The notes beneath the pieces were generated by a model. The model searched no databases. It worked only from the letters and a program-made list of their open reading frames with translations, and was not told the origin of the DNA. Shown here one piece after another: positions 33,851 to 60,877 of a stretch of DNA of 64,000 nucleotides. The position numbers were made by a program, and so were the translations under genes. Within the stretch, counting starts at the first letter, position 1; each line of letters opens with the position of its first letter. Source of the stretch: Sphingomonas koreensis (lineage in GTDB: Bacteria; Pseudomonadota; Alphaproteobacteria; Sphingomonadales; Sphingomonadaceae); the NCBI RefSeq assembly GCF_002797435.1, contig NZ_PGEN01000001.1, positions 4,152,501 to 4,216,500 of the forward strand, in the 5' to 3' direction.

Positions 33851-34261
33851 GCCGCGATGATGTCGCGAAGATCGGGCCGCAGCAAGCGGGCAGGGTGGAT
33901 GCGCTGCGCGATTGGCAGGCGCGTGCGACATCTCCGGTTTGCCGGAGCGCCGCGTGGCATCGACATGCTCGCCGTTGCGCTGGCGGATCTGCAATCGCGT
34001 CGGAAGCATCGCCGCAACATCGACCTCCACCTGTTCCTCAATGCCCTTCGCCCTGCCTTCCGCCGTCCGGTACGGTTGTCCTCACCCGCTGAAACCCGTC
34101 AGCCGTGTAAGTCACGGGATAACCGTAATAACCTGGTGAAGTTTTCCTACACGAGCCAAATGGGTTATACTGCGATCCTCGGCATTGGACGGGAAAGCGA
34201 AAGAGAACAGGATGCACCGCGCAGCCAATTCAAGTGTGAACTTTGCCGGCCGCCGTTCGTG
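33851..34261. other. Gap without a confident gene
   Basis: The 411 bases between the YCII and aldolase genes hold only poor, overlapping frames. The part from about 34080 to 34200 is relatively AT-rich (GTTTTCCTACACGAGCC, GGGTTATACTGCG). I see no tRNA, repeat or terminator there. Confidence 0.5.
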
Positions 34262-35026
34262 CTATTCGCGCCAGCTCTTGTCGGTGCGGTCGACCAGCCG
34301 CACCATTGCGGCAAAGTCGGCCGCGCCCGGGGCGATCGATGCCTGCGCCATGTGCAGGTCGCGCTGATGCACCGCGACCACCTCGTCCGGCACCACCAGC
34401 GGCTTGCCCATCGACAGGGTGGCGAGCTGGATCTCGCAGGCGCGTTGCAGTGCCCAATGCTTGACGAACGCCTCGGGCAGGGTACGGCCCATCGCGACGA
34501 TGCCGTGGTTGCGCAGCAGCAGCATCCGCTTGTCGCCCAGATTCTCGATCAGCCGGTCGCCTTCCTCGTCGCGCACCGTCACGCCCTCGAAGTCGTGATA
34601 GGCGATCTGCCCGGCGAAGTTGCAGGCGTAGAAGTTGATCGGCTGCAGCCCGCCCTCCAGGCTGCTCACCGCCATCCCCGCGGTGGTGTGGGTGTGCATG
34701 ATGCAATGCACGTCGGGCAGGTTGCGGTGGAACACCGAATGCTGGACGAAGCCGGCGCGGTTGACGAGGTACGGGCTGCCGTCGAGCTTGTTGCCGTCGA
34801 TATCGATCTTGACCAGGTTCGACGCCTTCACCTCGCTGAAATGCAGCCCGAACGGGTTGATCAGGAACGCATGATCCTCGCCCGGCACCTTCAGCGTGAT
34901 GTGGTTGTAGATCATCTCGGACCAGCCGAGCATGTCGAACACGCGGTAGGCGGAAGCGAGCTGCTGGCGCGCCTCCCATTCGGCGTCGGTCATGACGCGG
35001 CTGGTCTCGGCGGCGGCGGTGGCCAT
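34262..35026 (-). CDS. Class II aldolase/adducin family protein
   Basis: A 254-residue protein with the family core: YNHITLKVPGEDHAFLINPFG, the metal-binding HTHTTAGMAVSS and the distal His in LLLRNHGIVAMG. True class II aldolases cleave sugar phosphates with zinc, but many members with this LINPFGL pattern have no known reaction. It is monocistronic, with the manganese riboswitch on the other strand upstream. Confidence 0.88.
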   Translation of the reverse strand: MATAAAETSRVMTDAEWEARQQLASAYRVFDMLGWSEMIYNHITLKVPGEDHAFLINPFGLHFSEVKASNLVKIDIDGNKLDGSPYLVNRAGFVQHSVFHRNLPDVHCIMHTHTTAGMAVSSLEGGLQPINFYACNFAGQIAYHDFEGVTVRDEEGDRLIENLGDKRMLLLRNHGIVAMGRTLPEAFVKHWALQRACEIQLATLSMGKPLVVPDEVVAVHQRDLHMAQASIAPGAADFAAMVRLVDRTDKSWRE

Positions 35027-35118
35027 GATACCCTCTCCGTTTTTCGTGGTTGCGGTATGTATGCCATGAAGCGGCGGGGCAGGGCAACTTGCGTTGCGCG
35101 GGCGAAGCCGCTAGGGGC

Positions 35119-35243
35119 CGCCGCAGTCATCTGGGGAGTAGCCAGCCGTCTTGCGACGGGCCTCCGCGTCAACACACTTGGTCGAGAGGCCATGGCGCGA
35201 AGGGAACAGGGACTTGCGTCCCGTTCGGGCGAGACCAATGGCG
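35119..35243 (+). promoter_or_regulatory. yybP-ykoY-type manganese riboswitch
   Basis: The leader of the GDT1/UPF0016 gene holds the two hallmark loops of this class: GGGGAGTAGCC (35133-35143) and GTCAACACAC (35168-35177), ending in GGCGAGACC (35228-35236). A closing helix CGCC..GTC/GAC..GGCG (35119-35128 with 35233-35243) can form. Downstream, GGGCGG (35264-35269) can pair with CCGCCC (35298-35303) just before the GGAG ribosome site, a plausible expression platform. Known members sense Mn2+ and switch on manganese exporters. Confidence 0.8.
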
Positions 35244-35319
35244 CCATGCTTTCCGCTCAGGCTGGGCGGGAGGGTGTGGTGTCGTTGGAACTTCGCACCG
35301 CCCGGCCTGGAGACCTGTC

Positions 35320-35889
35320 TTGGAAGCCTTCCTCACCTCTACCGCGCTGGTCGCGCTCGCCGAGATCGGCGACAAGACGCAGCTGTTGGCGATTGTGCTG
35401 GCCACCCGTTTCAAGCGGCCGATGCCGATCATCCTCGGCATCCTCGTCGCGACCCTCGCCAATCATTTCCTCGCCGCGCTGGTGGGGCAGCAGGCGGCGG
35501 CTTGGCTGGAAGGGGCGTGGTTCCGCTACCTGATCGCGGCCTCCTTCATCGTCATGGCGGCGTGGACGCTGATCCCCGACAAGCTCGACAATGAGGATAG
35601 CAAGCCTTTGAAATACGGTGCATTTGCGACCACGGCTATCGCCTTCTTCCTGGTCGAGATGGGCGACAAGACCCAGGTCGCGACGATCGCGCTCGGCGCC
35701 CGCTTTGCCGAGGTCGGCTGGGTCACCGCCGGAACCACCCTTGGAATGATGATCGCCAATGTTCCGGCGGTCTTCCTCGGCAACGAGCTGGTCAGGCGCG
35801 TCCCGCTGCGCACCGTCCGTATCGTCGCGGCCCTCATGTTCCTGGCCATCGGCATCTGGATGCTCGCGCAGACTGCGCTGGCCGGATAG
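35320..35889 (+). CDS. GDT1/UPF0016 family cation (Mn2+) transporter
   Basis: A 189-residue, six-helix membrane protein with the two family signatures EIGDKTQ and EMGDKTQ, one in each half, which line the cation path. Homologues export or exchange Mn2+ or Ca2+. Initiation at TTG 35320 behind CTGGAG gives the right N-terminus (EAFLTSTALVALAEIGDKT); upstream in-frame sequence is the riboswitch. The ROK kinase starts ten bases after its stop. Confidence 0.92.
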   Translation: MEAFLTSTALVALAEIGDKTQLLAIVLATRFKRPMPIILGILVATLANHFLAALVGQQAAAWLEGAWFRYLIAASFIVMAAWTLIPDKLDNEDSKPLKYGAFATTAIAFFLVEMGDKTQVATIALGARFAEVGWVTAGTTLGMMIANVPAVFLGNELVRRVPLRTVRIVAALMFLAIGIWMLAQTALAG

Positions 35890-36793: not shown

Positions 36794-37480
36794 TCACTCG
36801 CCGTCGCGGTCGAGCGGCATCACCTCGATGAAGCGGTTGCGCGCGTCGAAGCGGCAGCGGAAGCGCTTGATTCCTTCGCGGCCCTTGTCCGCCGTGCCCT
36901 CGATCCGGGTGCCGCCACCTGGGGCGGCGGCGAGCCTTCCGGTGCGGACATAGGCCGGGCGCAGGCCATAAAGGCCCGCTGCCTCGCCCCGGCAATAAGC
37001 GGCCATGTTGCCTGCCGCGATCGGTTGACCGGAACCGATGCCGCCCGGGCCGCCGGGACCACCCGGACCTCCGCCGATCTGCCCGCTCACCCCGATATCG
37101 AGCGAATAGCTTGCGCTCTCGCCACGCCGCGCGGCGTTGCGCATCAGATAGACGCGAATCCGATAGTCGCCGGTCTGCGGCAGCCGTCCGCTGAAGCTGT
37201 TGCCTCCGTTGGAGCCGATGAACATCGCGCTCTGCGCGCCCGGCGCGATGACGTTGAAATAGGCGGATGCGTTGCCGCTGCGCATGTTCACCCGCATCGC
37301 CTGCCCTGCTCGCGCATTGATGATGTAATCGACGGTCGAATACCCACGGATCGTTCCGCGAACGACCTGGGATGTGGCGCCGCGTGGAAACTGCACGCGC
37401 TCGCTGCGGGCCGGCGACTGGGCAACGGCCGGCACAACGATGCACAGGCTGGCGGCGGCAAGCATCAACGGTTTCTGCAT
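36794..37480 (-). CDS. Secreted PliG-like protein
   Basis: A 228-residue exported protein with a signal peptide (MQKPLMLAAASLCIVVPAVAQ). Residues about 30-130 resemble PliG, the periplasmic inhibitor of goose-type lysozyme: FPRGATSQVVRGTIRGYSTVDYII-type opening, AGQAMRVNM, GDYRIRVYLMRNAARRGE and ASYSLDIGV. After a Gly/Pro linker (QIGGGPGGPGGPGG) an additional domain of about 75 residues follows with two Cys (AAYCRGEAAG, FRCRFDARN). The PliG match is from memory; the inhibitory role is untested. Confidence 0.6.
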   Translation of the reverse strand: MQKPLMLAAASLCIVVPAVAQSPARSERVQFPRGATSQVVRGTIRGYSTVDYIINARAGQAMRVNMRSGNASAYFNVIAPGAQSAMFIGSNGGNSFSGRLPQTGDYRIRVYLMRNAARRGESASYSLDIGVSGQIGGGPGGPGGPGGIGSGQPIAAGNMAAYCRGEAAGLYGLRPAYVRTGRLAAAPGGGTRIEGTADKGREGIKRFRCRFDARNRFIEVMPLDRDGE

Positions 37481-37703
37481 CTGGACTCTCCTGGGCAGGG
37501 ATGGCGCCGGGAGAACGCTATCATCGACTGTTTGTTGCGCGAACCGAACAATATCGCAGCGCCATGCCCCGCCGGGCATCACGCGGGCCGGATCCGGGCG
37601 CGCCGTCTCGATCTTTAATCTTCGGGTAACCATGCTTCGCCATTGTCGATGCGGCGAAACGGGGGCGGGCTGCGCCGGTCCGGCAATTGGAAACGGTCTA
37701 TTA

Positions 37704-39209
37704 ATGGCAGATCTTGGGCTCGCCCCTGCTCGGGCAGCGTTCAGCGGGAGAACGTTTCTTCGTCCGGCCTCTGCCTGGGATTGGATCTGCGCTGCGCCGT
37801 TGCTGATCCTCGCGATTCTGCTGTTCGCCCGGCCGGGCCTTCCCCTCGACGACGCCTATATCACGCTTCACAATGCGCGAACGCTGCTCGCCGGGGGCAC
37901 GGACCCGGTCTATGCCGGCTCGACCGCGCTGACTGGCGCCACCAGCGCGATCCATCTCGTCCTTATCGCGATCCTGGGACTGGCAATGCCGCTCGAGCTT
38001 GCGTCCAAGTTCGTGACACTGGCGGCGATCCTGCTCTACGCCGCTGGCCTGATCGTGCTGCTGCGCCGCTTGCAGTGTCCGCCAGCCGCACGCGCGATAC
38101 TCCTCATCACCGGCTTGATGGTCGGCTATATGCCCTATAATCTGCTCAACGGGCTGGAGAGCGGGCTGGCGGTCGCGGCGATCGTCTGGGGGCTCGTGCT
38201 GATCGACAGCAAGTGGCTGCCGCTGCTCTGCGGAACGATGCCCTTCGTGCGCCCGGAGCTCGCCTTTCTCGCCGCGCCGCTGTTCTTCTATCGCTGCTGG
38301 CTCGACCGGCGCGACCTGCGCCGGCTGGTAACCAACGGAGCGCTCGCGCTGGCCGCAGCGTCGCCATGGCTGATCTTCTACACCGTCTATACCGGCTGGC
38401 CGATTCCCAATACCGGCGGCGCCAAGGTGGCGTTCTTTGCAGAAACGACGCTGGGCTGGCGGGCGCGACGGGGGATCCTGATCGGCGTCGTCATCTCGTG
38501 CCTGTTCGGTCCGCTCTGGCTGTCGATGCCGGCGCTGGCCCGCCGGCCGGCCGGGCTTTGCGCGCTCGTCTTCCTGATCTGCTGGATCGGACTGACCGCG
38601 CTCGTCTTTCCGGGCGGCCTCCACCATAACTGGTTTCGTTATGTGAGCATGATCCTGCCCGTGTTGCTGCTCGGCTGGGCGATCATCTTCGCGCGCAAGG
38701 CCGCCTGGCATCCGCCGCTGCTCGCGCTGCTGTTGGGCTGGACCTTCTTCACCGGCGCGATCGGCGTGCGGAGCTATCTGGACCGGTCGCATACCGAGGC
38801 GCTCGATCGCGCCGCACAGCTCATCGGCACGAAGTTGCCGCGCGATTCCGTCATTCTGGTCCATGACGCAGGCTATCTCGCCTGGGCCTTGCCCGGTCAT
38901 CGGCTGGTCGATGTGGTGGGCCTCAAGAGCACCGCGAGCATGACATGGCACCGCCGGTATACCGCGCAGACCGGGAAGCGCGACGTGGCGCTGAACGGGA
39001 TCGCGCACGGCGCGAAGGCGCAGTATCTGGTCGCGCTGGCCGATCCTCCGGGCTTCTGGGGCGAGCTGGCGCTGGCGCTGAAACGGTCGGGGTGGACGCT
39101 GCAGCCGCTCTCGCCGGTCAAGGACTATGAGTATGTGGTGTACCGCATCGATCCGCCGGGGCGGACCGTGCCGGACACCGGCAACGCTGCGCCGCAGCGC
39201 GCGCGATAG
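37704..39209 (+). CDS. AftB-like GT-C membrane glycosyltransferase
   Basis: A 501-residue protein with about ten transmembrane helices and a C-terminal extracytoplasmic domain. Directly after the first helix comes LDDAYITLHNARTLLAGG, the acidic loop typical of GT-C arabinofuranosyltransferases of the AftB type, followed by GSTALTGATSAIH. Such enzymes use decaprenylphosphoryl-arabinose outside the membrane. The DPA-synthesis genes lie downstream on the same strand, supporting the role. ATG 37704 is preferred; an in-frame ATG at 37632 is possible. Confidence 0.65.
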   Translation: MADLGLAPARAAFSGRTFLRPASAWDWICAAPLLILAILLFARPGLPLDDAYITLHNARTLLAGGTDPVYAGSTALTGATSAIHLVLIAILGLAMPLELASKFVTLAAILLYAAGLIVLLRRLQCPPAARAILLITGLMVGYMPYNLLNGLESGLAVAAIVWGLVLIDSKWLPLLCGTMPFVRPELAFLAAPLFFYRCWLDRRDLRRLVTNGALALAAASPWLIFYTVYTGWPIPNTGGAKVAFFAETTLGWRARRGILIGVVISCLFGPLWLSMPALARRPAGLCALVFLICWIGLTALVFPGGLHHNWFRYVSMILPVLLLGWAIIFARKAAWHPPLLALLLGWTFFTGAIGVRSYLDRSHTEALDRAAQLIGTKLPRDSVILVHDAGYLAWALPGHRLVDVVGLKSTASMTWHRRYTAQTGKRDVALNGIAHGAKAQYLVALADPPGFWGELALALKRSGWTLQPLSPVKDYEYVVYRIDPPGRTVPDTGNAAPQRAR

Positions 39210-39218
39210 GGACAATCG

Positions 39219-40790
39219 ATGTACGCTTCGCAAGACACCCAGCCATCCGCGACCGCCAAGCACGCGCAGGTGGAGCCGGCTGCCACCGCGGCGCTGCCGT
39301 GGTGGCTGTATCTGATCTTCTGCGCGCTCAGCGTCGTACCGTTCATCGCCGTCGCCAACCCGCCGATTGTCGATTTTCCCAACCATGCGGCCCGGTTGGG
39401 CCTGCAATGCGCGATGGGCGATCCCGTCGTCTCGGCGATGTACGGCTTCAGGCTTGGGCTCATTCCCAATCTGGCGGCGGACCTGATCAACGCGCCTTTG
39501 TGCGGGATCGCGGCGCCTGCACTGGTGCTCAAGGGGACGATCATCGCCGCATTGGCCATCCTCTATTGCGCGTGCTGGCAGATCCAGCGTTCTCTCTACG
39601 GGGCCACCAACCCGTTCCTTCTCTTCGTGCCCGCCATGAGCCTCAACGTGGTCACCACCATCGGGTACATCAACTTCCTGTTTGGCGTCGCGATCGCGGC
39701 CGCCATGATCGCGCTTGCACTCGCGCGGCCACGGATGCGGTCGCTGGTGCTGATCGGCAATGCGGGCGGCGTCCTGCTGTTCTTCGCCCACATCTTCGCA
39801 CTGGCCTTCGCGGTGGTCTTCTTCTTTGGATGGTTCCTGAAATGGCCGATACGGTTGCGCGGCCTCATCGAGGCCTGGCTGCGGACGCTCGCGATGTTCG
39901 CGGTTCCGCTTGCGCTGATCCCGTTCGTGCCGAGCGAGAGCGCCGAGCTCTCCATCGGCTATATGGCGAAGACGAGGGCATTGTTCGCCCCCTTCCTGGT
40001 CCATTCAGGTGCGCAGGCGATCCTGATCCCCGTGGCGCTGGTGGTGCCATTCTATCTCCTGTGGCGGCATGGCCGGATCGCGCTGCACCGACGGATGCGA
40101 TTGCCGCTGCTGATGGTCGCGATCTACATCGTGATCGTCCCGTGCCAGTTGCAGGATGCGGTCGATATCGACTCCCGGACTTCCGTAGCGCTTGCCTATC
40201 TGCTGTTCGCGTCGCTGGCCCCGGCGGGGGTTGGCCGGCCCGTCGCGAAGCTGCTTTCGCTGCTGGCGGCGGTCCCGCTGATCGCGCATCTCGTCACCGT
40301 GGTGGCGGTGTGGGCGCCGTTCAGCCGCCAGGTGGACGAATTCCGTACGGCGATTGCGGTGCTGCCTGCGCATGCCACGATCCTGAGCGTCGGCGCGGAT
40401 GAGGGGGATACCCGCACCAACATCGCACCGACGGTAGCGTACAGCCACCTCGCAAGCTATGCCACCGCGGACCGGCGGGTCTTCAACCCGCTTGAGTTCA
40501 CCGGGATCGGCATGCAGCCCCTGCATGCGACAGGCCGTTTCGTCGATTATGACGTGCCGGCGTCGATGCCGCTCCCGGTCGAGGCGGCGATCGCGCTCAA
40601 GCTGCCCGACGCGCTGACGCGCTATCCGGTGCTGTCAAAACAGGTCAGCTACGCGCATCGCTGGCCGGAGCGCTTCGACTATGTCGTCTATTATCACTTC
40701 GGGACCAATCCGAACTTCGATCCGCAGGCGTTGCGCATGGTCAGGCAGGGCAGCTTCTTCTCGCTGCTTCAGGTGCGGCGCCCCCGATAG
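39219..40790 (+). CDS. Polytopic membrane protein, possible second GT-C-type transferase
   Basis: A 523-residue protein with about ten helices and an extracytoplasmic C-terminal region (about 380-523). After helix 1 it has NPPIVDFPNHAARLG, an acidic-loop position as in GT-C enzymes but with one Asp only. It begins nine bases after the AftB-like gene and precedes the arabinose-lipid genes. I do not recognise the family, and the transferase role is inferred from topology and context. Confidence 0.5.
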   Translation: MYASQDTQPSATAKHAQVEPAATAALPWWLYLIFCALSVVPFIAVANPPIVDFPNHAARLGLQCAMGDPVVSAMYGFRLGLIPNLAADLINAPLCGIAAPALVLKGTIIAALAILYCACWQIQRSLYGATNPFLLFVPAMSLNVVTTIGYINFLFGVAIAAAMIALALARPRMRSLVLIGNAGGVLLFFAHIFALAFAVVFFFGWFLKWPIRLRGLIEAWLRTLAMFAVPLALIPFVPSESAELSIGYMAKTRALFAPFLVHSGAQAILIPVALVVPFYLLWRHGRIALHRRMRLPLLMVAIYIVIVPCQLQDAVDIDSRTSVALAYLLFASLAPAGVGRPVAKLLSLLAAVPLIAHLVTVVAVWAPFSRQVDEFRTAIAVLPAHATILSVGADEGDTRTNIAPTVAYSHLASYATADRRVFNPLEFTGIGMQPLHATGRFVDYDVPASMPLPVEAAIALKLPDALTRYPVLSKQVSYAHRWPERFDYVVYYHFGTNPNFDPQALRMVRQGSFFSLLQVRRPR

Positions 40791-40864
40791 AAAGGGTGCG
40801 GGTTTAGCGTTTCGTTAACCACAGTCGTGGGATTGCCTTCGCAGCTTGATGAGGGGGCGGAACG

Positions 40865-42361
40865 GTGAGTGTTGCAACTGCAATTCGGCCAGACGAAGCA
40901 GGGGAAGTCTCACCTTCGGAAATCCGCGGCTTCTATCCGCTCGTCCTCGATCTAGATGGTACGCTGCTTCGCACCGATCTGCTCCTCGAATGCGCACTGC
41001 AGTTTGTACGCACGCGTCCATTGCGGGTCTTCCTGCTCCTGTGGTGGGCGCTCCACGGGATCGCATATCTGAAGCAGCAGCTCGCCGAACGGGCCGAACT
41101 CGCCATCGACCTGCTCCCAGTTAACGAAGCGCTAGCCGCCTATGCGCAGACCGCGGCCGACAATGGGCGCGAGGTAATCATCGCGACCGCGGCGAACCAG
41201 CTTCTTGCGCAGCATGTGTGCGATCGTTTCGATTTCGCGCGCGAGGCGCTGGCCTCGACCGCCGAGCTGAATTTGAAGGGCAAGCGGAAGGCCGAGGCGC
41301 TGGCCGCACGCTATCCGGACGGATTCGTCTATGCGGGCGACGCAGCTGCGGACCTGCATGTCTGGCGTGCTGCACGCTTCGCCATCTTTGCCGGCGACGA
41401 CGCTGGCGTCTTCAACCGGGTCAAGGCGCTGGTTCCGGTCGAAGCCCATTTCCAGCGTGAGCGCGCCGGTCTGACCGGCTGGATGAAGGCGCTCCGTGTC
41501 CATCAATGGGCGAAGAACGGGCTGATCTTTCTGCCGATGATGCTGGCCGGCGTGCTACTCGATCTCAATGCCTGGCTGGCCTGCACGCTGGGCTTCGTCG
41601 CGATGGGTGTCACCGCCTCGGCGACCTACCTGCTCAATGACCTGATGGACCTGCAGGAGGATCGCCGGCACTGGAGCAAGCGCAACCGCGCGCTCGCTTC
41701 CGGCACGATTAGTATTCCTGCCGCGACACTGGCTTCGATCTTTCTTCTGGGAGCAGGCTTCGGCCTAGCCATGCTGGCGGGCGGCCTTCCGACGCTGGCG
41801 CTCGTCCTGCTCTATTGCGCGGCCACGCTGACCTATTCGCTCTATCTCAAGCGGGTGCCGCTGCTCGACGTGACTGTGCTGGCGGGACTCTTCACGCTGC
41901 GCCTGGCGGTCGGCGCGGTGATCGTCGATGTCCGGCTTTCGGCTTGGCTGATGGTATTCTCGATGTTCCTGTTCTTCTCGCTGGCGCTGGCCAAGCGTTC
42001 GATCGAGCTTACGCGGACGATCAGCCGGGGATCGGCGATCACGGCGATGCACGGGCGAGGCTATGTTCCTGCGGACGCACCGTTCGTCTCGACGCTGGGT
42101 GTGTCTTCCGCGCTCACCGCGGTCGCGATCATGGTACTCTACCTGATCCACGAGGCCTTCCCCAGCGCGCTCTACAGCCATCCGGAGGTGCTCTGGGCCG
42201 CACCGGTCCTGATCGGGCTCTGGCTCGGCCGGATCTGGCTGCTTTGCACTCGTGGCCAGCTCAACGACGATCCGGTGCAGTTCACCGTGCACGACCGGGT
42301 CAGCATCCTTCTCGGCGCCGGCGTGATGTGCAGCTTTGCCGGCGCGGCGCTGTTGCGGTGA
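40865..42361 (+). CDS. HAD phosphatase fused to UbiA-family phosphoribosyltransferase (DPPR synthase-like)
   Basis: A 498-residue fusion. Residues about 25-200 form a HAD domain with LDLDGTLL (nucleophile Asp29, acid Asp31) and AGDAAADL. Residues about 205-498 form a UbiA membrane domain with NDLMDLQEDRR (NDxxDxxxD motif) and YLKRVPLLDVTVLAGLFTLRLAVGA, as in decaprenyl-phosphate phosphoribosyltransferase (Rv3806c). One protein may thus make DPPR and remove its 5-phosphate, a step assigned to a separate phosphatase in mycobacteria. GTG start at 40865. Confidence 0.85.
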   Translation: MSVATAIRPDEAGEVSPSEIRGFYPLVLDLDGTLLRTDLLLECALQFVRTRPLRVFLLLWWALHGIAYLKQQLAERAELAIDLLPVNEALAAYAQTAADNGREVIIATAANQLLAQHVCDRFDFAREALASTAELNLKGKRKAEALAARYPDGFVYAGDAAADLHVWRAARFAIFAGDDAGVFNRVKALVPVEAHFQRERAGLTGWMKALRVHQWAKNGLIFLPMMLAGVLLDLNAWLACTLGFVAMGVTASATYLLNDLMDLQEDRRHWSKRNRALASGTISIPAATLASIFLLGAGFGLAMLAGGLPTLALVLLYCAATLTYSLYLKRVPLLDVTVLAGLFTLRLAVGAVIVDVRLSAWLMVFSMFLFFSLALAKRSIELTRTISRGSAITAMHGRGYVPADAPFVSTLGVSSALTAVAIMVLYLIHEAFPSALYSHPEVLWAAPVLIGLWLGRIWLLCTRGQLNDDPVQFTVHDRVSILLGAGVMCSFAGAALLR

Positions 42362-42363
42362 GC

Positions 42364-43674
42364 ATGGCGTTCCACCCCGATAGCGGGGTTTCGTCGTGGA
42401 GCCGTGTCGGGAAGCGCGAACACCGGGTCGGCCGGCCGCGCTTCGCTGCGGAGCTAACAGCCTGGAACCAAAGCGGCCGCGATACCCGCCTGGCGATCGG
42501 CAATGGCCGTTCCTACAGCGATGTCGGGCTTTGCGACCGGGGCAATCTGATCGCGATGGGCGGGCTTGATCGCTTTCGCAGCTTCGATCCCGAAACCGGG
42601 ATCCTGGTCGCGGAAGCGGGTGTGATGCTGGACGCGATCCTGGAGACGTTCGTTCCGCGCGGCTTTTTCCTGCCCGTCACGCCCGGCACGCGGTTCGTGA
42701 CGCTGGGCGGTGCCGTCGCCAACGACGTCCATGGCAAGAACCATCACCGCGCAGGCACCTTTGGCCGCCACGTCCGGAGCATCGTGCTGGAGCGTTCGGA
42801 CATGGGCCGGGTACGCGTTTCGCCGGGCGAGAATCCGCAGCTCTTTGCCGCGACGATCGGCGGGTTGGGACTGACCGGCATCATCGTCGAGGTCGAGCTT
42901 CAGCTCCAGCGGATCGCGTCGTCGCAGCTCGACGTGGAGACCATCGCCTGCGTCGATCTAGACGCTTTGTGCGACACGCTGGAGCGGAGCGAAACCGGTT
43001 TCGAACACAGCGTCGCATGGATCGACTGCACCGCACGCAACGGGCGCGGTATTGTCAGCCGTGCCAACTGGGCCGAGACGGGACCGCTTTCTGTTCATGC
43101 GCCGCCCCGGCGATCGGTACCCGGAATCGGTGTTCCGACGCCGCTCAATCCAATGACGCTCAAGCTGTTCAACGGCGCCTATTTCACGATGGGGCAAATG
43201 CGGGCGGGCCGGGCGCAGATCCATTATTCGCCGTTCTTCTATCCGTTGGACGCTATCCTCAACTGGAACCGGCTCTACGGAAAACAGGGCTTCTACCAGT
43301 ATCAATGCGTGATCCCGGCAGCGGCAGGGCGAGCGCCGCTGGCGGCCCTGCTCGCGGAGATCGCTGCGTCCGGCGAGGGATCGTTGCTGGCGGTGCTAAA
43401 GACGTTCGGAGACCTCCCGAGCCCCGGCATGCTGTCCTTCCCGACGAAGGGGCTGACGCTGGCCCTCGATTTCCGCAACCGGGGCGCGGCGACCCTCTCG
43501 TTGTTCGATCGGCTGGACCGCATCGTCCTCGAAGCGGGCGGCCGGCTCTATCCGGCCAAGGATTTGCGCATGCCGGCGGCGCTGTTCCGGGCGGGCTATC
43601 CCCAATCGAAACAATTTGAAGCGATGATCGACCCGTGCTGTCGATCCGATTTCTGGACGCGAGTGGCTCAATGA
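42364..43674 (+). CDS. dprE1: DprE1-like FAD-dependent oxidoreductase
   Basis: A 436-residue FAD_binding_4/ALO-family enzyme: LAIGNGRSYSDVGLC, PVTPGTRFVTLGGAVANDVHGKNHH and the C-terminal GGRLYPAKDLR, equivalent to the active-site Lys region of mycobacterial DprE1. It should oxidise decaprenylphosphoryl-ribose at C2'. At the position of the benzothiazinone-target Cys of M. tuberculosis (NICVDF) the sequence reads TLALDF, so Ala replaces Cys. Its start overlaps or abuts the UbiA stop (GTG 42358 is an alternative), and it overlaps the next gene by ATGA. Confidence 0.85.
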   Translation: MAFHPDSGVSSWSRVGKREHRVGRPRFAAELTAWNQSGRDTRLAIGNGRSYSDVGLCDRGNLIAMGGLDRFRSFDPETGILVAEAGVMLDAILETFVPRGFFLPVTPGTRFVTLGGAVANDVHGKNHHRAGTFGRHVRSIVLERSDMGRVRVSPGENPQLFAATIGGLGLTGIIVEVELQLQRIASSQLDVETIACVDLDALCDTLERSETGFEHSVAWIDCTARNGRGIVSRANWAETGPLSVHAPPRRSVPGIGVPTPLNPMTLKLFNGAYFTMGQMRAGRAQIHYSPFFYPLDAILNWNRLYGKQGFYQYQCVIPAAAGRAPLAALLAEIAASGEGSLLAVLKTFGDLPSPGMLSFPTKGLTLALDFRNRGAATLSLFDRLDRIVLEAGGRLYPAKDLRMPAALFRAGYPQSKQFEAMIDPCCRSDFWTRVAQ

Positions 43675-44411
43675 CGAAACGGATCCTTGTTCTGGGTGCA
43701 ACCTCCGAGATCGCGGAGGAAACGGCGCGCCTTTATGCTGCGGAGGGCGCGCGGTTCGTCCTGGCGGGGCGCGATCCTGTGCGGCTTGCGGACATCGCCG
43801 CGGATTTGCGGGTGCGGGGCGCCAGCCTGGCAGAGGTCGATGCGGTCGACCTTGCCGCGGCGGATGTGGAAACATGCACGCAGCGATGGATCGGCATTCT
43901 GGGGGGGCTTGATCTGGTCCTGCTCGCTTATGGTGTTCTGGGTGATCAGCGGATCGATGAGGCGGACCTTTCGGCAGCGGCGGCGATGATCGATACCAAC
44001 TTCCGTTCGGCCAGTCTTTGGTGCCTCGCCACGGCCCGTCATCTGGAGGCGGCCGGAAGCGGCACGCTGGCGGTGATCGGATCGGTTGCAGGGGATCGTG
44101 GCCGCCAGTCAAACTACCTCTATGGCGCGACCAAGGCGGGTCTCGCGGCGCTGGTCGAAGGGATCGCACACCGGCTCGCGCCGACGGGTGCGCGGGCGGT
44201 GCTGATCAAGCCTGGCTTCGTCGATACCGCCATGACCGCGCATATCCAGCCCAAGGGCGCATTGTGGAGTTCGCCGGCGAAGATCGCCGCGCGGATCCGC
44301 AAGGCGGCCGACGGGAAGGGGACGATCGTGTACGCGCCCGGCTATTGGCGCCTGATCATGACCATCGTCCGCTCGGTCCCGACACCAATCTTCCATCGCA
44401 CGAAGCTCTGA
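43671..44411 (+). CDS. dprE2: DprE2-like short-chain dehydrogenase
   Basis: A 246-residue SDR: cofactor loop LGATSEIAEETARLYAAEG, VIGSVAGDRGRQSNYLYGATKAG with the YxxxK catalytic pair, and KPGFVDTAMT. The GDRGRQSNYLYG stretch is close to mycobacterial DprE2, which reduces the 2'-keto intermediate to decaprenylphosphoryl-arabinose. Order and coupling with the DprE1-like gene support this. Confidence 0.85.
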   Translation: MTKRILVLGATSEIAEETARLYAAEGARFVLAGRDPVRLADIAADLRVRGASLAEVDAVDLAAADVETCTQRWIGILGGLDLVLLAYGVLGDQRIDEADLSAAAAMIDTNFRSASLWCLATARHLEAAGSGTLAVIGSVAGDRGRQSNYLYGATKAGLAALVEGIAHRLAPTGARAVLIKPGFVDTAMTAHIQPKGALWSSPAKIAARIRKAADGKGTIVYAPGYWRLIMTIVRSVPTPIFHRTKL

Positions 44412-44412
44412 C

Positions 44413-44823
44413 ATGGCGCTCGCGGCCCCCGCGATCGATCGCATACCGGTTTTCGTCCGGTTCCTCGCCTGCGGCGGCGTCGCCGCCCTGGCAAACTGGG
44501 GGTCGCGCTTCCTGTGGAGCCTGATCCTGCCGTTCAGCCTGGCGGTGGTCGCCGCCTATGGCGTCGGCATGGTCGTGGCGTTCTATCTGTTCCGCGCCTT
44601 CGTATTCGATTCCGCGCGGCCGATCGGCGGGCAGGCGCGGGACTTCTGCCTGGTCAATCTGTTCGGGATGGCTGCGACGGTCGGCGTCGCCTGGCTGCTG
44701 GTCGAGGTGCTCTTTCCAGCGGTCGGCATGACCTTTCACGCCGAAGCGATCGGACATGCGATCGCGATCGCGACGCCGGTCGCGACAAGCTGGGTCGGCC
44801 ACCGCATCGTCACGTTCCGCTAG
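44413..44823 (+). CDS. GtrA-family membrane protein
   Basis: A 136-residue protein with four helices (FLACGGVAALANWGSRFLWSL, AVVAAYGVGMVVAFYLFRAFVF, DFCLVNLFGMAATVGVAWLLV, VGHRIVTFR). GtrA proteins are linked to flipping or handling of polyprenyl-linked sugars; mycobacterial Rv3789 sits beside dprE1/dprE2. It begins one base after the SDR stop, so it is the last gene of the arabinose-lipid operon. It converges with the Hsp70 gene with ten bases between stops. Confidence 0.88.
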   Translation: MALAAPAIDRIPVFVRFLACGGVAALANWGSRFLWSLILPFSLAVVAAYGVGMVVAFYLFRAFVFDSARPIGGQARDFCLVNLFGMAATVGVAWLLVEVLFPAVGMTFHAEAIGHAIAIATPVATSWVGHRIVTFR

Positions 44824-44833
44824 GTCGAAAGGG

Positions 44834-46135
44834 TCATGCGACCCACTGGCTGAGATCGTCCTGTTCGCCGATCAGTGCCAGCCCGTGCGCGATCGAGGTC
44901 AGCTCGCCGCCGGTCGCGATCCGCTCGGCGCCGAAGCGGCGTTCGAACAACATGCGGATAGCGGGGATCAGTGACGAGCCGCCGGTCAGGAAGACGCGGT
45001 CGATCCTCTCGGCCGATGTCGCAGCCCGGTCAAGTGCGAGGTCGAGCGCTGCCTCGATCCGGCGCAGATCACCGGCGATCCATTGCTCGAAATCCACGCG
45101 CCGTACCGGTTCGGCGATGGTCACACCGCCGCCCTCGAAGCGGAACTGGGCTTCGGTATCGCTCGACAATGCACGCTTGAGCTCTCCGACCGCGTCGTAC
45201 AGCGGGAAGCCCTGCTCATGCTCGATCAGCGCGATCATCCGGCCGATCGGTTCGGGATCGATCGTGTCGCGTTGAAGGCGGCGCAGTTCTTCGAGCGTGC
45301 GGCGGTTGCGCATCAGCGCGAGCCGCGACCAATCGGCGAACTCGGTGAAATAGCCGCCGGGGATCGGCAGCAGTTTGCCGAACGAGCGGTAGTTCCCGCC
45401 CTTGCCGAGCAACGGAAGCACGAGATGATCGACAATGCGCTGGTCGAACCGGTCGCCCGCGATCCCGATGCCGGCCGAACCGAGCGGTTCGCAGCGGCGC
45501 ACTGCCCCCGGTTCGGCAACGCGGACGATCGAGAAATCGGTGGTGCCGCCACCGAAGTCGGCGACCAGAATCATCGCGGGCTCGGTGAGCCGGGATGCAT
45601 AGCTATAGGCGGCACCGAGCGGCTCGTAGACATAGTGAAGCTCGATTCCGAACCCTTCGAGCATCGCGTCGTAGCGCTGGCGGGCGAGGGCGGGATCGGG
45701 ACGGGCGCCAGCATATTCGACCGGGCGTCCGACGATCACGCGGCGAGGACGCTCGTTCAGCGCGCCGTCGGCATGCACGACGAGCTTGGCCAGGAACTTC
45801 TGTCCCAGATCCTCGAAGCGGAACGGTTTGCCGAAGATCTGCGCGCGCTCGAACAGCGGGCTTGCCGCGACGCTCTTGAACGACTGGACGAAACGGCTGT
45901 CGAGCGGTGACTGGAGGAACTCCCTGATTGCCCAGGGGCCGGCCTCGTGCGCGATCCCGTTCCAGCCGCGTTCTTCTTCCCAGAAACAGAGGGCAGTGCG
46001 GAACACGGCGCCGGCATTGCCCGCAAACTCGACAAGCCGGGAATCGCCGTGGCCGTCGGCCAGCGCGACGACCGTGTTGGTTGTACCGAAATCGAGCCCG
46101 AGCGCGCCCGGGCGTATGGCGCTGTCCACGCGCAT
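44834..46135 (-). CDS. Hsp70-family protein, YegD-like
   Basis: A 433-residue ATPase-domain-only Hsp70 relative: LGLDFGTTNTVVAL (phosphate 1), VADFGGGTTDFSIVRV (phosphate 2) and FLTGGSSLIPAIR (adenosine motif). It lacks the substrate-binding domain of DnaK, like E. coli YegD, and its role is unknown. The start is uncertain: AGGAG abuts the ATG at 46135 but is ideally six bases before the GTG at 46129, which may be the true start. Confidence 0.88.
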   Translation of the reverse strand: MRVDSAIRPGALGLDFGTTNTVVALADGHGDSRLVEFAGNAGAVFRTALCFWEEERGWNGIAHEAGPWAIREFLQSPLDSRFVQSFKSVAASPLFERAQIFGKPFRFEDLGQKFLAKLVVHADGALNERPRRVIVGRPVEYAGARPDPALARQRYDAMLEGFGIELHYVYEPLGAAYSYASRLTEPAMILVADFGGGTTDFSIVRVAEPGAVRRCEPLGSAGIGIAGDRFDQRIVDHLVLPLLGKGGNYRSFGKLLPIPGGYFTEFADWSRLALMRNRRTLEELRRLQRDTIDPEPIGRMIALIEHEQGFPLYDAVGELKRALSSDTEAQFRFEGGGVTIAEPVRRVDFEQWIAGDLRRIEAALDLALDRAATSAERIDRVFLTGGSSLIPAIRMLFERRFGAERIATGGELTSIAHGLALIGEQDDLSQWVA

Positions 46136-46307
46136 CTCCTGTTCTGGTTCGGAGGCTCGAAGGCACCGCGGCAATGCGCGAATCACACCGAGCGGCGGCC
46201 CACCTAGCTGAAGTTTCGGGCATTTCGAACCCGCAACGGCTCTGTGCCTCCTGCGGTTTTGTTTCCATAGTGGGATTTGGAATCACCACTTGGTCAGGGA
46301 GACGCCT

Positions 46308-47981: not shown

Positions 47982-50036
47982 TCAGTACATCGCCCGGCCG
48001 CAATTATAGGCCGGGACGCGGCCGGTTCCGGATCCGATGAAGCCCGAATAGCGCACATCGTCCCGGGCCAGCGCGTTCAGATACTCCTCGATATTGGGGT
48101 AGCCGTCGCCATCGGCATCGGCATTCGCATCCCAGACATTGGGGTTGGTATTGGTGAAGCGGCGTTCCCAGTCGTCGGGCATGCCGTCATTGTCGCTGTC
48201 GGTCTTGGCGGCCCCCTGCGTCAGGTTCGCCCAGCCGCCGGACTGCGCCACAGTCGATGTCCAGCTCGACGCGAAGAGATAGGGTGCGCTGTCGCAGGTG
48301 CGCAGGTCATCGACATAGAGCGCATCGACATTGTCGCGGCACCCGCCGTCGCGGCACAGGTCCGCACCGGCATAGGCCATGACGTCGCGCATCGCCTGTT
48401 CGGGCGAGGTGATCTGGCTCGGGTCGAACATCAGCGATCGTCCGGGTGCGAGCGCGTAGCTGCTGTTCTGCACGACGTTGAGTCCGCTGCGCGAGCAATC
48501 GGCGACACCCGCGGGCGTCACGGCGCAGATGGTGGTGGGCACGACATGAGTGATGAAACCCGCCGCATTGACGAAGGGGTCGGTGACGGTCGATCCGAAC
48601 TGCCCGGCAATCCGTGTGCGCGGGGTCACGTTGTCGCGCGCATAGACGTTGAACCCGAAGTTCAGCGCGCCACCCGGCGTATAAAGACCGATCAGATAGT
48701 TGCCGTCGCTCGCATTGTAGCGCGGCCCGCGCAGGCTGACGTTGCCGACATAGTTTGCATAGATGCTGCCGAACTGGTTGGAGAGCAGTCCACTCTCCGC
48801 GATGAAGTGGTAGAGAACATTGTTGAAGATGTCGGCCTGGCCGGTATTTCCGGCGGTGGGCGGGTTGGTTCCGGCCGCCAGGTTGATCCCACGCTGCTCG
48901 CCATGTTGCGACAGATTGTGTGCGATGGTGATGTTGTTGGCCGGCTTCAGGAAAAAGGTCTTGCAGTGCAGCGACGAGCTATGGCCGGCGTTGAGGCAGA
49001 TATTGGGACCGATGATCGACCATTGAACCGTGCAGTTGTTGCAGGCGGTATCGAGGCTCTCGTCGGTGCCGAACATCGTCGAGACGTGATCGATGATCTG
49101 GTAGCTGGTGTCCTGCAGCCGGATCGGATCGCCATTGTCCGACGACCGGCCGGGGTGTTCGCCCAGCCGTGTGCGGACATGGCGCAGGATCATGTGATCG
49201 CCGCCGCGCCGCGTGTCGATCAGCGAATCCACCGGATTGTAGTTGGCGCCCAGCCGAAACTCGATGCCGCCCGGTGACGTCTGGCCGGCGATATAGATCT
49301 TGGGCGTGGTTATCTGTGCGGGCGATTGAAGGATGATCGCGCCGGCGACGTCGAAGACGCAATAGCGCGGTCGTCCGGCGGGGATTGTGTAGGGTGTATT
49401 GACGGCCAGCGCGAGCGCGCACTCGCGATAGCTGATCTTCCCGTCGTTGGGGTTGGCCACGTCGTCCAGCGTGTCGATCTTGTACACGACGGCATTGGCC
49501 GCACGGACCGAGGTGTTTCGGCCGAACCCGATCGCGGTGGGAAAGGCGAGCGGGTGTAGGGCGCGGTCGGGAATAGCCCCATTGTCGGGATTGGCGAAAG
49601 CGGCGGCGGCGCCGGCAGGCGGTTGCGATCCTTGCACTGTCACGGTCGCCGAACCCGCCGCTGTGCCGGAGGGGAAGGTGCAGCTCAGCACGTAGTTGGT
49701 GGTGGCGCCCGGAGTGACGGTGACGCTTCCGCTGGCGGGCTGAGCGCCGCTGAAGGATGCGCCGCCGCTGGCTGTGCAGCCAGTCGCGCCTGAAGAGGCG
49801 GTCCAGCTGAGAACGATCGAAGCGCCGGGCGCGACCGTTGTGGACGAGGCGGTGAGGGTGACGGTTGCCGTGGGGGAAGGGGTGACTACCGGAGGCGGGC
49901 TGGGCGAGGGCGTCACCACCCCGCCTGTGCTGCTGCTGCCACCGCCACCACCGTCGCAGCCGGCCATCAGCAAGACGAGCGTCAGCGCTGCTTGCAACCG
50001 AACGGGCCGATCCCGTCGCAGATCGGATACTGCCAT
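47982..50036 (-). CDS. Pectate-lyase-like lipoprotein with Ca-binding repeats (copy 1)
   Basis: A 684-residue surface protein: lipobox LLMAGC, a Gly/Ser/Pro linker, an Ig-like domain (about 65-145), a right-handed beta-helix of the PL1 pectate-lyase type (about 150-590: GQTSPGGIEFRLG, IIDHVSTMFGTDESLD, VQWSIIGPNIC, NLSQHGEQRGIN) and a C-terminal Ca-binding tract (DSDNDGMPDDWE, DADGDGYPNIEEYL). It probably cleaves an acidic polysaccharide, perhaps the cell's own exopolysaccharide. A close paralogue lies at 58853-60877. ATG 50036 is preferred over GTG 50048. Confidence 0.85.
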   Translation of the reverse strand: MAVSDLRRDRPVRLQAALTLVLLMAGCDGGGGGSSSTGGVVTPSPSPPPVVTPSPTATVTLTASSTTVAPGASIVLSWTASSGATGCTASGGASFSGAQPASGSVTVTPGATTNYVLSCTFPSGTAAGSATVTVQGSQPPAGAAAAFANPDNGAIPDRALHPLAFPTAIGFGRNTSVRAANAVVYKIDTLDDVANPNDGKISYRECALALAVNTPYTIPAGRPRYCVFDVAGAIILQSPAQITTPKIYIAGQTSPGGIEFRLGANYNPVDSLIDTRRGGDHMILRHVRTRLGEHPGRSSDNGDPIRLQDTSYQIIDHVSTMFGTDESLDTACNNCTVQWSIIGPNICLNAGHSSSLHCKTFFLKPANNITIAHNLSQHGEQRGINLAAGTNPPTAGNTGQADIFNNVLYHFIAESGLLSNQFGSIYANYVGNVSLRGPRYNASDGNYLIGLYTPGGALNFGFNVYARDNVTPRTRIAGQFGSTVTDPFVNAAGFITHVVPTTICAVTPAGVADCSRSGLNVVQNSSYALAPGRSLMFDPSQITSPEQAMRDVMAYAGADLCRDGGCRDNVDALYVDDLRTCDSAPYLFASSWTSTVAQSGGWANLTQGAAKTDSDNDGMPDDWERRFTNTNPNVWDANADADGDGYPNIEEYLNALARDDVRYSGFIGSGTGRVPAYNCGRAMY

Positions 50037-50589
50037 ATACTTACCCACAACTTTCCGGAGCCCTAAACCAGAGTTGCTTCTAGTGGCGCGCCCTTCGGCT
50101 CACCAGTTGGCCAAAGGGACAGGGCGATGTCGCGATGCGGCAGCGGATCGGTGCGCGCGGGGGGCCGCGCAGCTCGTTCGTGCAGCAATTTCCGGGCGTT
50201 GGGCCGTTGCGGCTCCGAGCGGTTCGAAGCTGCAGGCGCGATATATGGTTGCCAATTCGCGTCGGGCCGACTTTTGCGATCGACGATCGGTGCTGCTTGA
50301 TGCGCCGCCGGTGCAGCTTGCTACGTAATATTCCTACTCGCGCGGCTGCAAACCGGCCTTAGATTGGCGCCGCGATTCCAGCGGTCCGCACGGAAAGGCA
50401 CAAAGCCGGGGTTCAATCGTAAGCCTGTGTTCCCGGGCCTCGATACCGGTCCTGCTGTCTGCGCAGCATCCATCTTGAGTACCGGCGGGTGATTGCATTC
50501 TTCGAATCTCCAGCCAGCTGCGGTGTCGGTTCGGTTGACCTGGAACGTGCGGAAGCCGGTTACACATGCAACTGAAGGCGTGACGTTGT
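50037..50589. other. Long gap without a confident gene
   Basis: These 553 bases separate the lyase promoter from the divergent receiver gene. The frames present do not look like protein. I find no clear hairpin, riboswitch or repeat. The region may hold two divergent promoters and long leaders. Confidence 0.5.
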
Positions 50590-58852: not shown

Positions 58853-60877
58853 TCAGAACATCGGCCTTCCGCAATTATAGGCCGGTACGCGTCCCGTTCC
58901 GGAGCCGACCATGCCGTAGTAGCGCACATCGTCCTGGGCCAGCGCGTTCAGATACTCCTCGATGTTAGGGTAGCCGTCGCCATCGGCATCGGCATTCGCA
59001 TCCCAGACATTGGGGTTGGTGTTGGTGAAGCGGCGCTCCCAATCGTCGGGCATGCCGTCATTGTCGCTGTCGGTCTTGGCGGCCCCCTGCGTCAGGTTCG
59101 CCCAGCCGCCCGCCTCCGCGACCGACGACGGCCAGTTCGACGCGAAGAGATAGGGCGCGGTGTCGCAACTGCGCACATCCTCCACATACATCTGATCGAC
59201 ATTGTCGCGGCAGATGCCATCACGGCAAAGGTCGGCGCCGGCGAAGGTGAGCACATCGAGGAGCGCCTGCTGGGCCGTCGCGATGCGGGTCGGATCGAAC
59301 GAAGGCTCGGTGGTGCCGGGCATCAGCGCAAAGGCGGAATTCTGCACCGTGGCGAGGCCGGTGCGGCTGCAATCCTGCGCTCCGGTGCTGGTGACGCCGC
59401 AGATCGAGCTTGCGGTCACGTGCGCAATGAAGCCCGCGGTGTTCTGGAACGGGTCGGTCGTCGTCGATCCGAACTGACCGGCGATGCGGGTGCGCGGCGT
59501 CACGTTGCCCGCGGAATGGATGTTGAAGCCGAACGGCAAGCGGGCGCCGTTGCCATAAAGGCCGATCAGGTAGTTGCCATCGCTTGCATTGTATCGCGGC
59601 CCGCGGAGATAGGCGTTGTTGACATAGTTGGCATAGACGCTGCCGAACTGGTTGGAGACAAGTCCCGCCTCCGCAATGAAGTGGTAGAGGACATTGTTGA
59701 CCACATCCACCTGGCCGGTGGCGCCGGCGGTGGCGGGGTTGGTTCCGACGGCGATGTTGATGCCGCGCTGTTCGCCATGCTGCGAGAGATTGTGCGCGAT
59801 CGTCACGCGCGATGCAGGCTTCAGGAAGAAGGTCTTGCAGTGCAGGGCAGACGTGTGCCCGGCGTTGCGGCAGATGTTCGGCCCGATGATCGACCATTGG
59901 ACCGTGCAGTCGATGCACGCCATGTCGAGGCTTTCGTCGGTCCCGAACATGGTCGAGACGTGATCGATGATCTGGTTCCGGGTGCCGGACATGCGGATCG
60001 GGTCGCCATTCTCCGACCTGCGGCCGACATGCGGGCCCGTGCGCGTGCGCACATGCCGCAGGATCATGTTGTTGCCGCCGTGGCGCGTGTCGATCAGCGA
60101 ATCCACCGGGTTGTACTTGTCGCCGAGCCTGAACTCGATCCCGCCCGGCGAGGTCTGCCCGGCAATGTAGATCTGCGGCTGGGTGATGAATGCCGACGAC
60201 TGCAGAACGATCGCGCCCGCGACGTCGAAGACGCAGTAGCGCGGGCGATTGGCCGGAATGTTGTAAGGGCTGGTTACCGGTAGTGCGAGCGCGCACTCCC
60301 GGTAGCTGATCTTGCCGTCGTTCGGATTGGCGACGTCGTCCAGCGTATTGATCTTGTACACGACCGCATTGGTGCTGCGGACGCTGGTTTTCTTTCCGAA
60401 TCCGGTCGCGGTCGGGAAGGCGAGGGGGTGGCGCGCCCGGTCGGGAATGGCGCCATTGTCGGGGTTTGCGAAGGCCGCAGCGGCGCCCGCCGAAGGCGGC
60501 GGCGTGGGGGTCGGGGTGACGATTGGCGGTAACGGCGTTGGCGTCGGCGTGGGGCTCGGCGGCGTGATGATGATCCCGCCGGTGGTCCGCAAAAGCGACT
60601 CGTTCACCCAGCCATCGACTCCCTGACCGAAATCAACCCGCCACCAGCGCTTTCCGAGGCGGAGGACTGGCCCCTCCACGACCGTGCCGACCGCGCCGCC
60701 CTGCTGCATGCCGACGCCCGTTTGAAGATCGCTTCCCATCACGCGGAATTTCGCGGTCAGTTCCACGCCTGCGCCCAGCGTAATCGGGTTAGCGCGGGCA
60801 GCGACCATCGCGGTGGCTGCCAATGCAATGACAGCCACCGCGCCCAGCCCCGCTCCACGCTTGGAGATGAAATCCAT
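58853..60877 (-). CDS. Pectate-lyase-like secreted protein with SH3-like domain (copy 2)
   Basis: A 674-residue paralogue of the protein at 47982-50036. The N-terminus differs: an ordinary signal peptide (GAVAVIALAATAMVAARA) and an SH3-like domain (about 35-98: GSDLQTGVGMQQGGAVGTVVEG, WWRVDFGQGVDGWVNESLL) instead of lipobox plus Ig, then a Thr/Pro linker. From residue about 130 the beta-helix and Ca-binding tract are nearly identical in sequence and, in places, in DNA. This version may be released or bound to wall or glycan. AGGGG precedes the ATG. Confidence 0.87.
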   Translation of the reverse strand: MDFISKRGAGLGAVAVIALAATAMVAARANPITLGAGVELTAKFRVMGSDLQTGVGMQQGGAVGTVVEGPVLRLGKRWWRVDFGQGVDGWVNESLLRTTGGIIITPPSPTPTPTPLPPIVTPTPTPPPSAGAAAAFANPDNGAIPDRARHPLAFPTATGFGKKTSVRSTNAVVYKINTLDDVANPNDGKISYRECALALPVTSPYNIPANRPRYCVFDVAGAIVLQSSAFITQPQIYIAGQTSPGGIEFRLGDKYNPVDSLIDTRHGGNNMILRHVRTRTGPHVGRRSENGDPIRMSGTRNQIIDHVSTMFGTDESLDMACIDCTVQWSIIGPNICRNAGHTSALHCKTFFLKPASRVTIAHNLSQHGEQRGINIAVGTNPATAGATGQVDVVNNVLYHFIAEAGLVSNQFGSVYANYVNNAYLRGPRYNASDGNYLIGLYGNGARLPFGFNIHSAGNVTPRTRIAGQFGSTTTDPFQNTAGFIAHVTASSICGVTSTGAQDCSRTGLATVQNSAFALMPGTTEPSFDPTRIATAQQALLDVLTFAGADLCRDGICRDNVDQMYVEDVRSCDTAPYLFASNWPSSVAEAGGWANLTQGAAKTDSDNDGMPDDWERRFTNTNPNVWDANADADGDGYPNIEEYLNALAQDDVRYYGMVGSGTGRVPAYNCGRPMF

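What the first reader, a model, noticed from the sequence alone, without database searches (positions are those of the whole stretch)
37704..44823. Complete decaprenylphosphoryl-D-arabinose pathway with candidate arabinosyltransferases
Six same-strand genes encode an AftB-like GT-C protein, a second polytopic protein, a HAD-UbiA fusion, DprE1-like and DprE2-like oxidoreductases and GtrA. This parallels mycobacterial Rv3789-Rv3791 and Rv3805c-Rv3807c and the Azorhizobium noe genes. With PRPP and polyprenyl phosphate it could make DPA and attach D-arabinofuranose to a surface molecule in a sphingomonad. The glycan target and the second transferase are undescribed.
Basis: partly seen in the sequence, partly recalled or inferred. 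Interest (0 to 1): 0.78.

Follow-up and report, generated by a model that had tools for sequence, protein, structure and literature searches.

The report
D-arabinose surface-decoration gene cassette
A compact set of six genes in a Gram-negative (probably sphingomonad) chromosome looks able to make the same kind of lipid-carried D-arabinose that tuberculosis bacteria use for their walls and to attach it to a still unknown surface molecule; the recipe is known from other bacteria, but the two attaching enzymes match no named protein family that was searched.

Summary

Best reading: a periplasmic pentofuranose-modification cassette: PRPP plus polyprenyl phosphate gives lipid-linked ribose, then D-arabinofuranose, flipped by GtrA and transferred by GTC2 and GTC1. 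That kind is published (Kelly 2024; P. aeruginosa pilin; Azorhizobium noe genes), so this is a new member of a known kind. It is an accessory trait: HAD-UbiA in 26 of 295 same-genus genomes, DprE1/DprE2/GtrA beside it in 4 including this one. Corrections: the lipid is probably undecaprenyl; the HAD domain replaces Rv3807c. D-arabinose itself and the acceptor are unproven.

The parts
37704..39209 (+). GTC1, AftB-like GT-C protein (501 aa), candidate D-arabinofuranosyltransferase
39219..40790 (+). GTC2, GT-C-fold membrane protein (523 aa) without Pfam or NCBIfam family; candidate second arabinosyltransferase
40865..42361 (+). HAD phosphatase-UbiA fusion (498 aa): polyprenyl-phosphate phosphoribosyltransferase plus 5'-phosphatase
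   Evidence: NF006088 567.2 bits over cut-off 351; M. tuberculosis DPPRS 8j8j E 2.5e-19 with the NDxxDxxxD motif at 258-266; HAD DLDGT at 29-33
42364..43674 (+). DprE1-like FAD oxidase (2'-oxidation of lipid-linked ribose)
   Evidence: PDB DprE1 E 5.9e-64; K418 kept, the C387 position is Ala; NF053785 339.2 bits, below the equivalog cut-off of 500 (run on the longer ORF 41815-43671)
43671..44411 (+). DprE2-like SDR reductase; its ATG overlaps the DprE1 stop
   Evidence: Best PDB match DprE2 21gq_C E 1e-28, next SDR E 5.2e-20; NF053786 179.6 bits, below cut-off 250
44413..44823 (+). GtrA-family small membrane protein, candidate flippase of the lipid-linked pentose
   Evidence: PF04138 50.2 bits, cut-off 26.1

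Best explanation
The six genes form one operon that makes and uses polyprenyl-phosphoryl-beta-D-arabinofuranose. Supported by homology and conserved motifs: the UbiA part joins PRPP to polyprenyl phosphate (probably undecaprenyl) and the HAD part removes the 5'-phosphate; DprE1 oxidises and DprE2 reduces C2, turning ribose to arabinose. Inferred: GtrA flips the lipid-sugar to the periplasm. Supported as fold and donor-site conservation, inferred as activity: GTC1, and by fold and linkage GTC2, transfer D-Araf from the lipid to an acceptor outside the inner membrane. Most likely GTC2 adds the first (or chain) residue and AftB-like GTC1 adds a further or terminal one. The acceptor is most likely a surface polysaccharide encoded elsewhere; this is a guess by analogy.
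For: Domain and residue matches. Biochemistry of a HAD-UbiA fusion of the same layout (PMC11127046) and the statement there that Araf systems carry DprE1/DprE2 homologues. In the 25 other same-genus HAD-UbiA loci, DprE1, DprE2 and GtrA homologues (tblastn E 1e-10) occur together in 3 (L065, L104, L113), and neither DprE1 nor GtrA in the other 22, as expected if the three serve one product. GTC2-UbiA contig-length coincidences 18, null mean 0.39, maximum 4 over 100 offsets. In a tree of 123 sequences the same-genus GTC2 paralogues (27 entries, 26 distinct) form their own clade with support 1.0, outside all 17 UbiA-linked sequences and own GTC2.
Against: No sugar or lipid data. DprE1 and DprE2 fall below NCBIfam equivalog cut-offs. 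No polysaccharide cluster was recognised among the 24 other window ORFs scanned, all between 18 and 63 kb, so the acceptor is unsupported. The three relatives with the donor genes have no GTC1 or GTC2 at E 1e-10; L113 has only a 16.7-bit GTC1-profile hit. Whether the contigs with GTC2 and UbiA also carry DprE1/DprE2 could not be read. GTC1 coincidences are few: 3 with GTC2 and 2 with UbiA, each against a null maximum of 2. At a looser cut-off weak DprE1 (L107, 43.9 bits) and DprE2 (L116 47.8, L117 56.6 bits) hits appear in loci counted as lacking the pair.
Confidence: 0.8

Rival explanations
1. The donor pathway is right but the acceptor is a protein, such as a pilin, as with TfpW of P. aeruginosa; one or both GT-C proteins arabinosylate protein side chains.
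For: TfpW, a GT-C protein, puts alpha-1,5-linked D-Araf on group IV pilins (PMC11841053, passages). The operon stands apart from recognisable polysaccharide genes among the ORFs scanned.
Confidence: 0.15
2. The cassette makes a free-standing D-arabinan (GTC2 polymerises, GTC1 branches or caps) rather than decorating another glycan.
For: The alphaproteobacterium Devosia submarina makes ->2)-alpha-D-Araf-(1->5)-alpha-D-Araf-(1-> (PMC8707391, passages with the abstract); the top-ranked UbiA in the plasmid collection is from Devosia neptuniae, 47.5% identity.
Against: That Devosia plasmid locus has UbiA and GtrA but no DprE1/DprE2 listed or matched. No export or priming genes were recognised next to the operon.
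Confidence: 0.15
3. The UbiA fusion and oxidoreductases act on another prenol or sugar (for instance a ribosylated or xylosylated lipid), so the product is not D-arabinose.
For: 22 of 25 other genus HAD-UbiA loci lack DprE1 at E 1e-10, so the UbiA fusion probably serves other products too; DprE1/DprE2 scores are below equivalog cut-offs.
Against: DprE1 and DprE2 are the best matches among solved structures, and homologues occur as a pair with GtrA in 3 other loci.
Confidence: 0.08

Closest known systems
Three-component pentofuranose side-chain systems (Citrobacter youngae ORF12-ORF15; Kelly et al. 2024, PMC11127046)
   Same: HAD-UbiA fusion as polyprenyl phosphoribose synthase, epimerising enzymes, lipid flippase, GT-C transferase; DprE1/DprE2 versions for Araf and versions with several GT-C genes are mentioned there
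   Different: GtrA instead of a MATE flippase; two GT-C proteins whose relation to GT136 is untested; not placed in a recognised O-antigen locus
Mycobacterial DPA pathway (Rv3806c, DprE1, DprE2, Rv3789) and AftB
   Same: Same reaction order; GTC1 matches AftB in profile, fold and donor residues. That Rv3789 is GtrA-like is recalled; Kelly calls it SMR-family
   Different: HAD domain fused to UbiA in place of the Rv3807c phosphatase; probably undecaprenyl; DprE1 position C387 is Ala; Emb, AftA, AftC, AftD relatives were not searched for in the genome
P. aeruginosa group IV pilin arabinosylation (TfpW)
   Same: D-Araf and a GT-C transferase in a Gram-negative
   Different: Two GT-C proteins here, no recognised pilin neighbour; sequence comparison with TfpW not made
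Azorhizobium noeCHOP (Nod factor arabinosylation) and the NGR234 UbiA locus
   Same: noeC, noeH, noeO are suggested there to make a D-arabinose precursor by similarity to M. tuberculosis proteins (PMC2443382, passages); pairing them with UbiA, DprE1, DprE2 is recalled
   Different: Target there is the Nod factor; NGR234 has a UbiA fusion at 40.8% identity without DprE1/DprE2 hits
Paracoccus sp. AK26 plasmid pAK3 and Ruegeria sp. SCSIO 43209 plasmid cassettes
   Same: UbiA-GtrA-DprE1-DprE2 in a row, in Paracoccus followed by three hypothetical proteins that look polytopic
   Different: No match to the GTC1 or GTC2 profiles at E 1e-3

Membership tests
Three-component pentofuranose modification system (Kelly 2024) | UbiA-type polyprenyl phosphoribose synthase with phosphatase | tested here: met
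   NF006088 567.2 bits, UbiA and HAD domains, NDxxDxxxD and DLDGT motifs
Three-component pentofuranose modification system (Kelly 2024) | Flippase for the lipid donor | tested here: inconclusive
   GtrA family instead of MATE; flipping not testable here
Three-component pentofuranose modification system (Kelly 2024) | GT-C transferase | tested here: met
   GTC1 and GTC2 models have GT-C folds
Three-component pentofuranose modification system (Kelly 2024) | GT-C of family GT136 | not tested
   ORF12 sequence not fetched; no GT136 model used
Three-component pentofuranose modification system (Kelly 2024) | DprE1/DprE2 homologues when the sugar is Araf | tested here: met
DprE1 (NCBIfam NF053785 equivalog) | Score above the curated cut-off of 500 bits | tested here: not met
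   339.2 bits; so DprE1-like, though the best solved match is DprE1
DprE2 (NCBIfam NF053786 equivalog) | Score above the curated cut-off of 250 bits | tested here: not met
   179.6 bits; NF005489, an SDR family without a specific name, scores higher at 255.6 (cut-off 267); best solved match is DprE2
AftB | Sequence relation to AftB | tested here: met
   Profile of 45 sequences, E 1.4e-7 to 9dlf, the only PDB sequence at E 0.001 or better; the single sequence gives no hit
AftB | AftB fold with periplasmic domain | tested here: met
AftB | Donor-contact residues D62, T91, E172, R221, T274, R372 | tested here: met
   First five aligned and conserved; R372 lies outside the aligned range, near-invariant R312 is a positional guess
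AftB | Retaining transfer of D-Araf giving a beta-1,2 link | not testable with these tools
   Needs enzyme assay and NMR
GtrA (PF04138) | Pfam gathering score 26.1 | tested here: met
   50.2 bits
GT-C superfamily (GTC2) | GT-C membrane fold | tested here: met

The most novel reading that the evidence does not exclude
GTC2 founds a new family of arabinofuranosyltransferases that travels with HAD-UbiA, and GTC1 is a Gram-negative AftB-type retaining enzyme; together they build a D-arabinan or D-Araf branch capped with beta-D-Araf, a rare linkage: Kelly et al. write that all but one of the pentofuranose side chains they surveyed were alpha-linked.
Probability: 0.25. Interest if true: 0.65.

Novelty: new member of a known kind. 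Interest (0 to 1): 0.42.

Why it matters
If true, a Gram-negative makes mycobacterial-type lipid-linked D-arabinose, giving an independent and perhaps easier source of enzymes that make and use it: a DprE1 relative with Ala at the C387 position (C387 as the benzothiazinone-bound residue is recalled, not looked up) and a compact AftB relative. It would also define GTC2 as a new transferase family, and the genus comparison suggests that one donor module is combined with different transferases.

Tried and rejected
Rejected: chance ORFs (homology); conserved core function. Not settled: a recent insertion. One tRNA-Arg at 3586-3662 is the only tRNA found, and the empty-site test failed because of 18 window genes searched (E 1e-15) in 17-20 kb around the YegD-like gene of 8 relatives, only that gene was found, plus weak histidine-kinase hits in two. 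Led nowhere: two genome-contig scans with GTC2 gave no confirmed relative; plasmid search with GTC2 gave none; promoter scan found 0 sites, shuffles mean 1.2; two distant GTC2 hits in other families (G651 and G1010, 27-28% identity, the latter reported with one in-frame TAG) have no UbiA hit in the 7.2 and 12.8 kb held; ORF 33857-35533 has no Pfam hit and looks like an antisense artefact. Other GT-C families absent from the structural lists are not excluded. TfpW, GT136 and Rgt sequences were not compared. Literature: searches; arabinofuranos* + Alphaproteobacteria + DprE1 gave 0 papers and Sphingomonas + arabinan + arabinosyltransferase gave 1, a plant paper (listing only), within the held open library. 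In Kelly 2024 the main text does not name sphingomonads or rhizobia; its supplement, which lists further systems, was not seen. Papers (passages) gave nothing on this pathway in Gram-negatives.
Full report
What is there. The window is part of a 4,398,689-base single-contig assembly without a name. Six + strand genes run from 37704 to 44823 with gaps of 9, 74, 2, -4 and 1 bases (DprE2 starts at the ATG at 43671, overlapping the DprE1 stop; the PDB search of DprE2 used 43674, one residue short). A - strand gene (36797-37633, a secreted-looking protein) diverges upstream and a YegD-like Hsp70 gene (44834-46186, - strand) converges downstream. No polysaccharide or pilin cluster was recognised among the 24 other window ORFs scanned with Pfam, all between 18 and 63 kb; several of these had no Pfam hit at all, and 1-18 kb was not scanned.

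The donor module. The UbiA fusion scores 567.2 bits with NF006088 (cut-off 351) and aligns to M. tuberculosis decaprenyl-phosphate phosphoribosyltransferase 8j8j with the NDxxDxxxD motif intact (N258, D259, D262, D266). Kelly et al. showed for Citrobacter ORF15, which has the same HAD-UbiA layout, that the equivalent residues are needed to make polyprenyl-phosphoryl ribose from PRPP, and that loss of the HAD aspartate leaves mainly the phosphorylated product with a little residual dephosphorylation (PMC11127046, section read). The DprE1-like protein matches DprE1 at E 5.9e-64 with K418 kept and Ala at C387; the DprE2-like protein matches DprE2 best (E 1e-28). Both fall below NCBIfam's equivalog cut-offs, so I call them DprE1-like and DprE2-like. 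GtrA is above its Pfam cut-off.

Do they belong together? The protein database gives no context, but it lists contig lengths. Comparing 94 of 95 GTC1 hits, 98 of 98 GTC2 hits and 119 of the 120 listed UbiA hits (2394 found; the own or 99% identical first entries dropped) and requiring a shared source, GTC2 and UbiA share a length 18 times, GTC1 and GTC2 3 times, GTC1 and UbiA twice; lengths offset by 1-50 bases give means of 0.39, 0.27 and 0.21 and maxima of 4, 2 and 2. So the GTC2-UbiA link is strong, and the GTC1 links are barely above or at the null maximum, though lengths 77,769 and 8,196 occur in all three lists. In a tree of 123 sequences (95 of 98 homologues, three short ones dropped, one of them UbiA-linked; 27 paralogue entries from same-genus loci, 26 distinct; own) the paralogues form one clade (support 1.0), and no paralogue lies among the 17 linked sequences and own. 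The node that joins the linked sequences has support 0.23 under midpoint rooting, so only the separation from the paralogues is firm.

Distribution. HAD-UbiA at E 1e-30 or better occurs in 26 of 295 same-genus genomes, own included, none of the others above 44% identity. I read all 25 other loci: DprE1, DprE2 and GtrA homologues at E 1e-10 sit beside UbiA in 3 (L065, L104, L113); in the other 22 there is no DprE1 or GtrA hit, one distant SDR hit (L117) and one 28% GTC2 paralogue (L111); none has GTC1 at that cut-off. At looser cut-offs L107 has a weak DprE1 hit, L116 and L117 weak DprE2 hits, and L113 a 16.7-bit GTC1-profile hit (run on 21 of the 25). L118 is only 6.2 kb. GTC2 at E 1e-30 is found in 1 of 396 sampled genomes of the order (own); GTC1 by profile in 1 of 385 of the class (own); GTC2 by profile at E 1e-60 in 3 of 385, the other two distant and without UbiA in the DNA held. 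These three searches scored only the 3-4 best first-look candidates per genome. GTC1 and GTC2 were not searched through all 295 genus genomes. In the 40 nearest relatives and own, DprE1 above 300 bits occurs in 2, own and G016, and distant GTC2 paralogues occur in 23 of 24 same-genus relatives. The operon is thus an accessory trait, and the donor module is paired with other proteins in the three relatives.

Mechanism. Cytoplasm: PRPP plus polyprenyl phosphate to lipid-ribose phosphate, dephosphorylated, then two-step epimerisation to lipid-D-Araf. Membrane: GtrA flips it (inference; Kelly et al. say direct flippase evidence is lacking for the model proteins too). Periplasm: GTC2 and GTC1 transfer D-Araf. 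Because AftB is a retaining enzyme making beta-1,2 links, GTC1 may cap or branch; residue conservation does not prove retention.

Novelty. The kind is published: Kelly et al. describe DprE1/DprE2-bearing three-component systems and ones with several GT-C or epimerase genes (Discussion read); P. aeruginosa TfpW and Azorhizobium noeCHOP are older cases. Devosia submarina shows that an alphaproteobacterium can make D-arabinan. What appears new is a GT-C family without a Pfam or NCBIfam name that travels with HAD-UbiA, and an AftB relative in a Gram-negative; whether Kelly's supplement already lists such cases I could not see. I therefore rate it a new member of a known kind.

Noticed in passing
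L065:13914-14549 (G016): A VTT-domain (DedA-type by recall) membrane protein directly follows DprE2 in a relative's GtrA-UbiA-DprE1-DprE2 cassette; a candidate lipid-carrier flippase tied to the pathway.
   Followed up: no
L066:8354-11864 (own genome C1:1468853-1472363): Two adjacent - strand proteins of 569 and 565 aa without Pfam hits; the first is a distant GTC2 paralogue. Such paralogues occur in 23 of 24 same-genus relatives.
   Followed up: partly
window 36797-37633: Secreted-looking protein of 279 aa next to the operon, without Pfam hit, found in only 2 of 41 genomes including own.
   Followed up: partly
window 47985-50048 and 58856-60877: Two - strand proteins of 688 and 674 aa with a weak, below-cut-off bacterial TSP3 repeat near the same C-terminal position; perhaps paralogues.
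   Followed up: no
L099-L103: Five same-genus HAD-UbiA loci have other polytopic neighbours and no DprE1; in three (L099, L101, L102) the neighbours have the same stop-to-stop lengths of 535, 475 and 438 codons. Probably another pentofuranose product.
   Followed up: no
L068 (CP099616.1): Plasmid of a leaf-isolated Sphingomonadaceae strain carries HAD-UbiA near a polysaccharide tyrosine autokinase, an acyltransferase, a PAP2 phosphatase and an integrase; similar UbiA hits lie on two sister plasmids.
   Followed up: no
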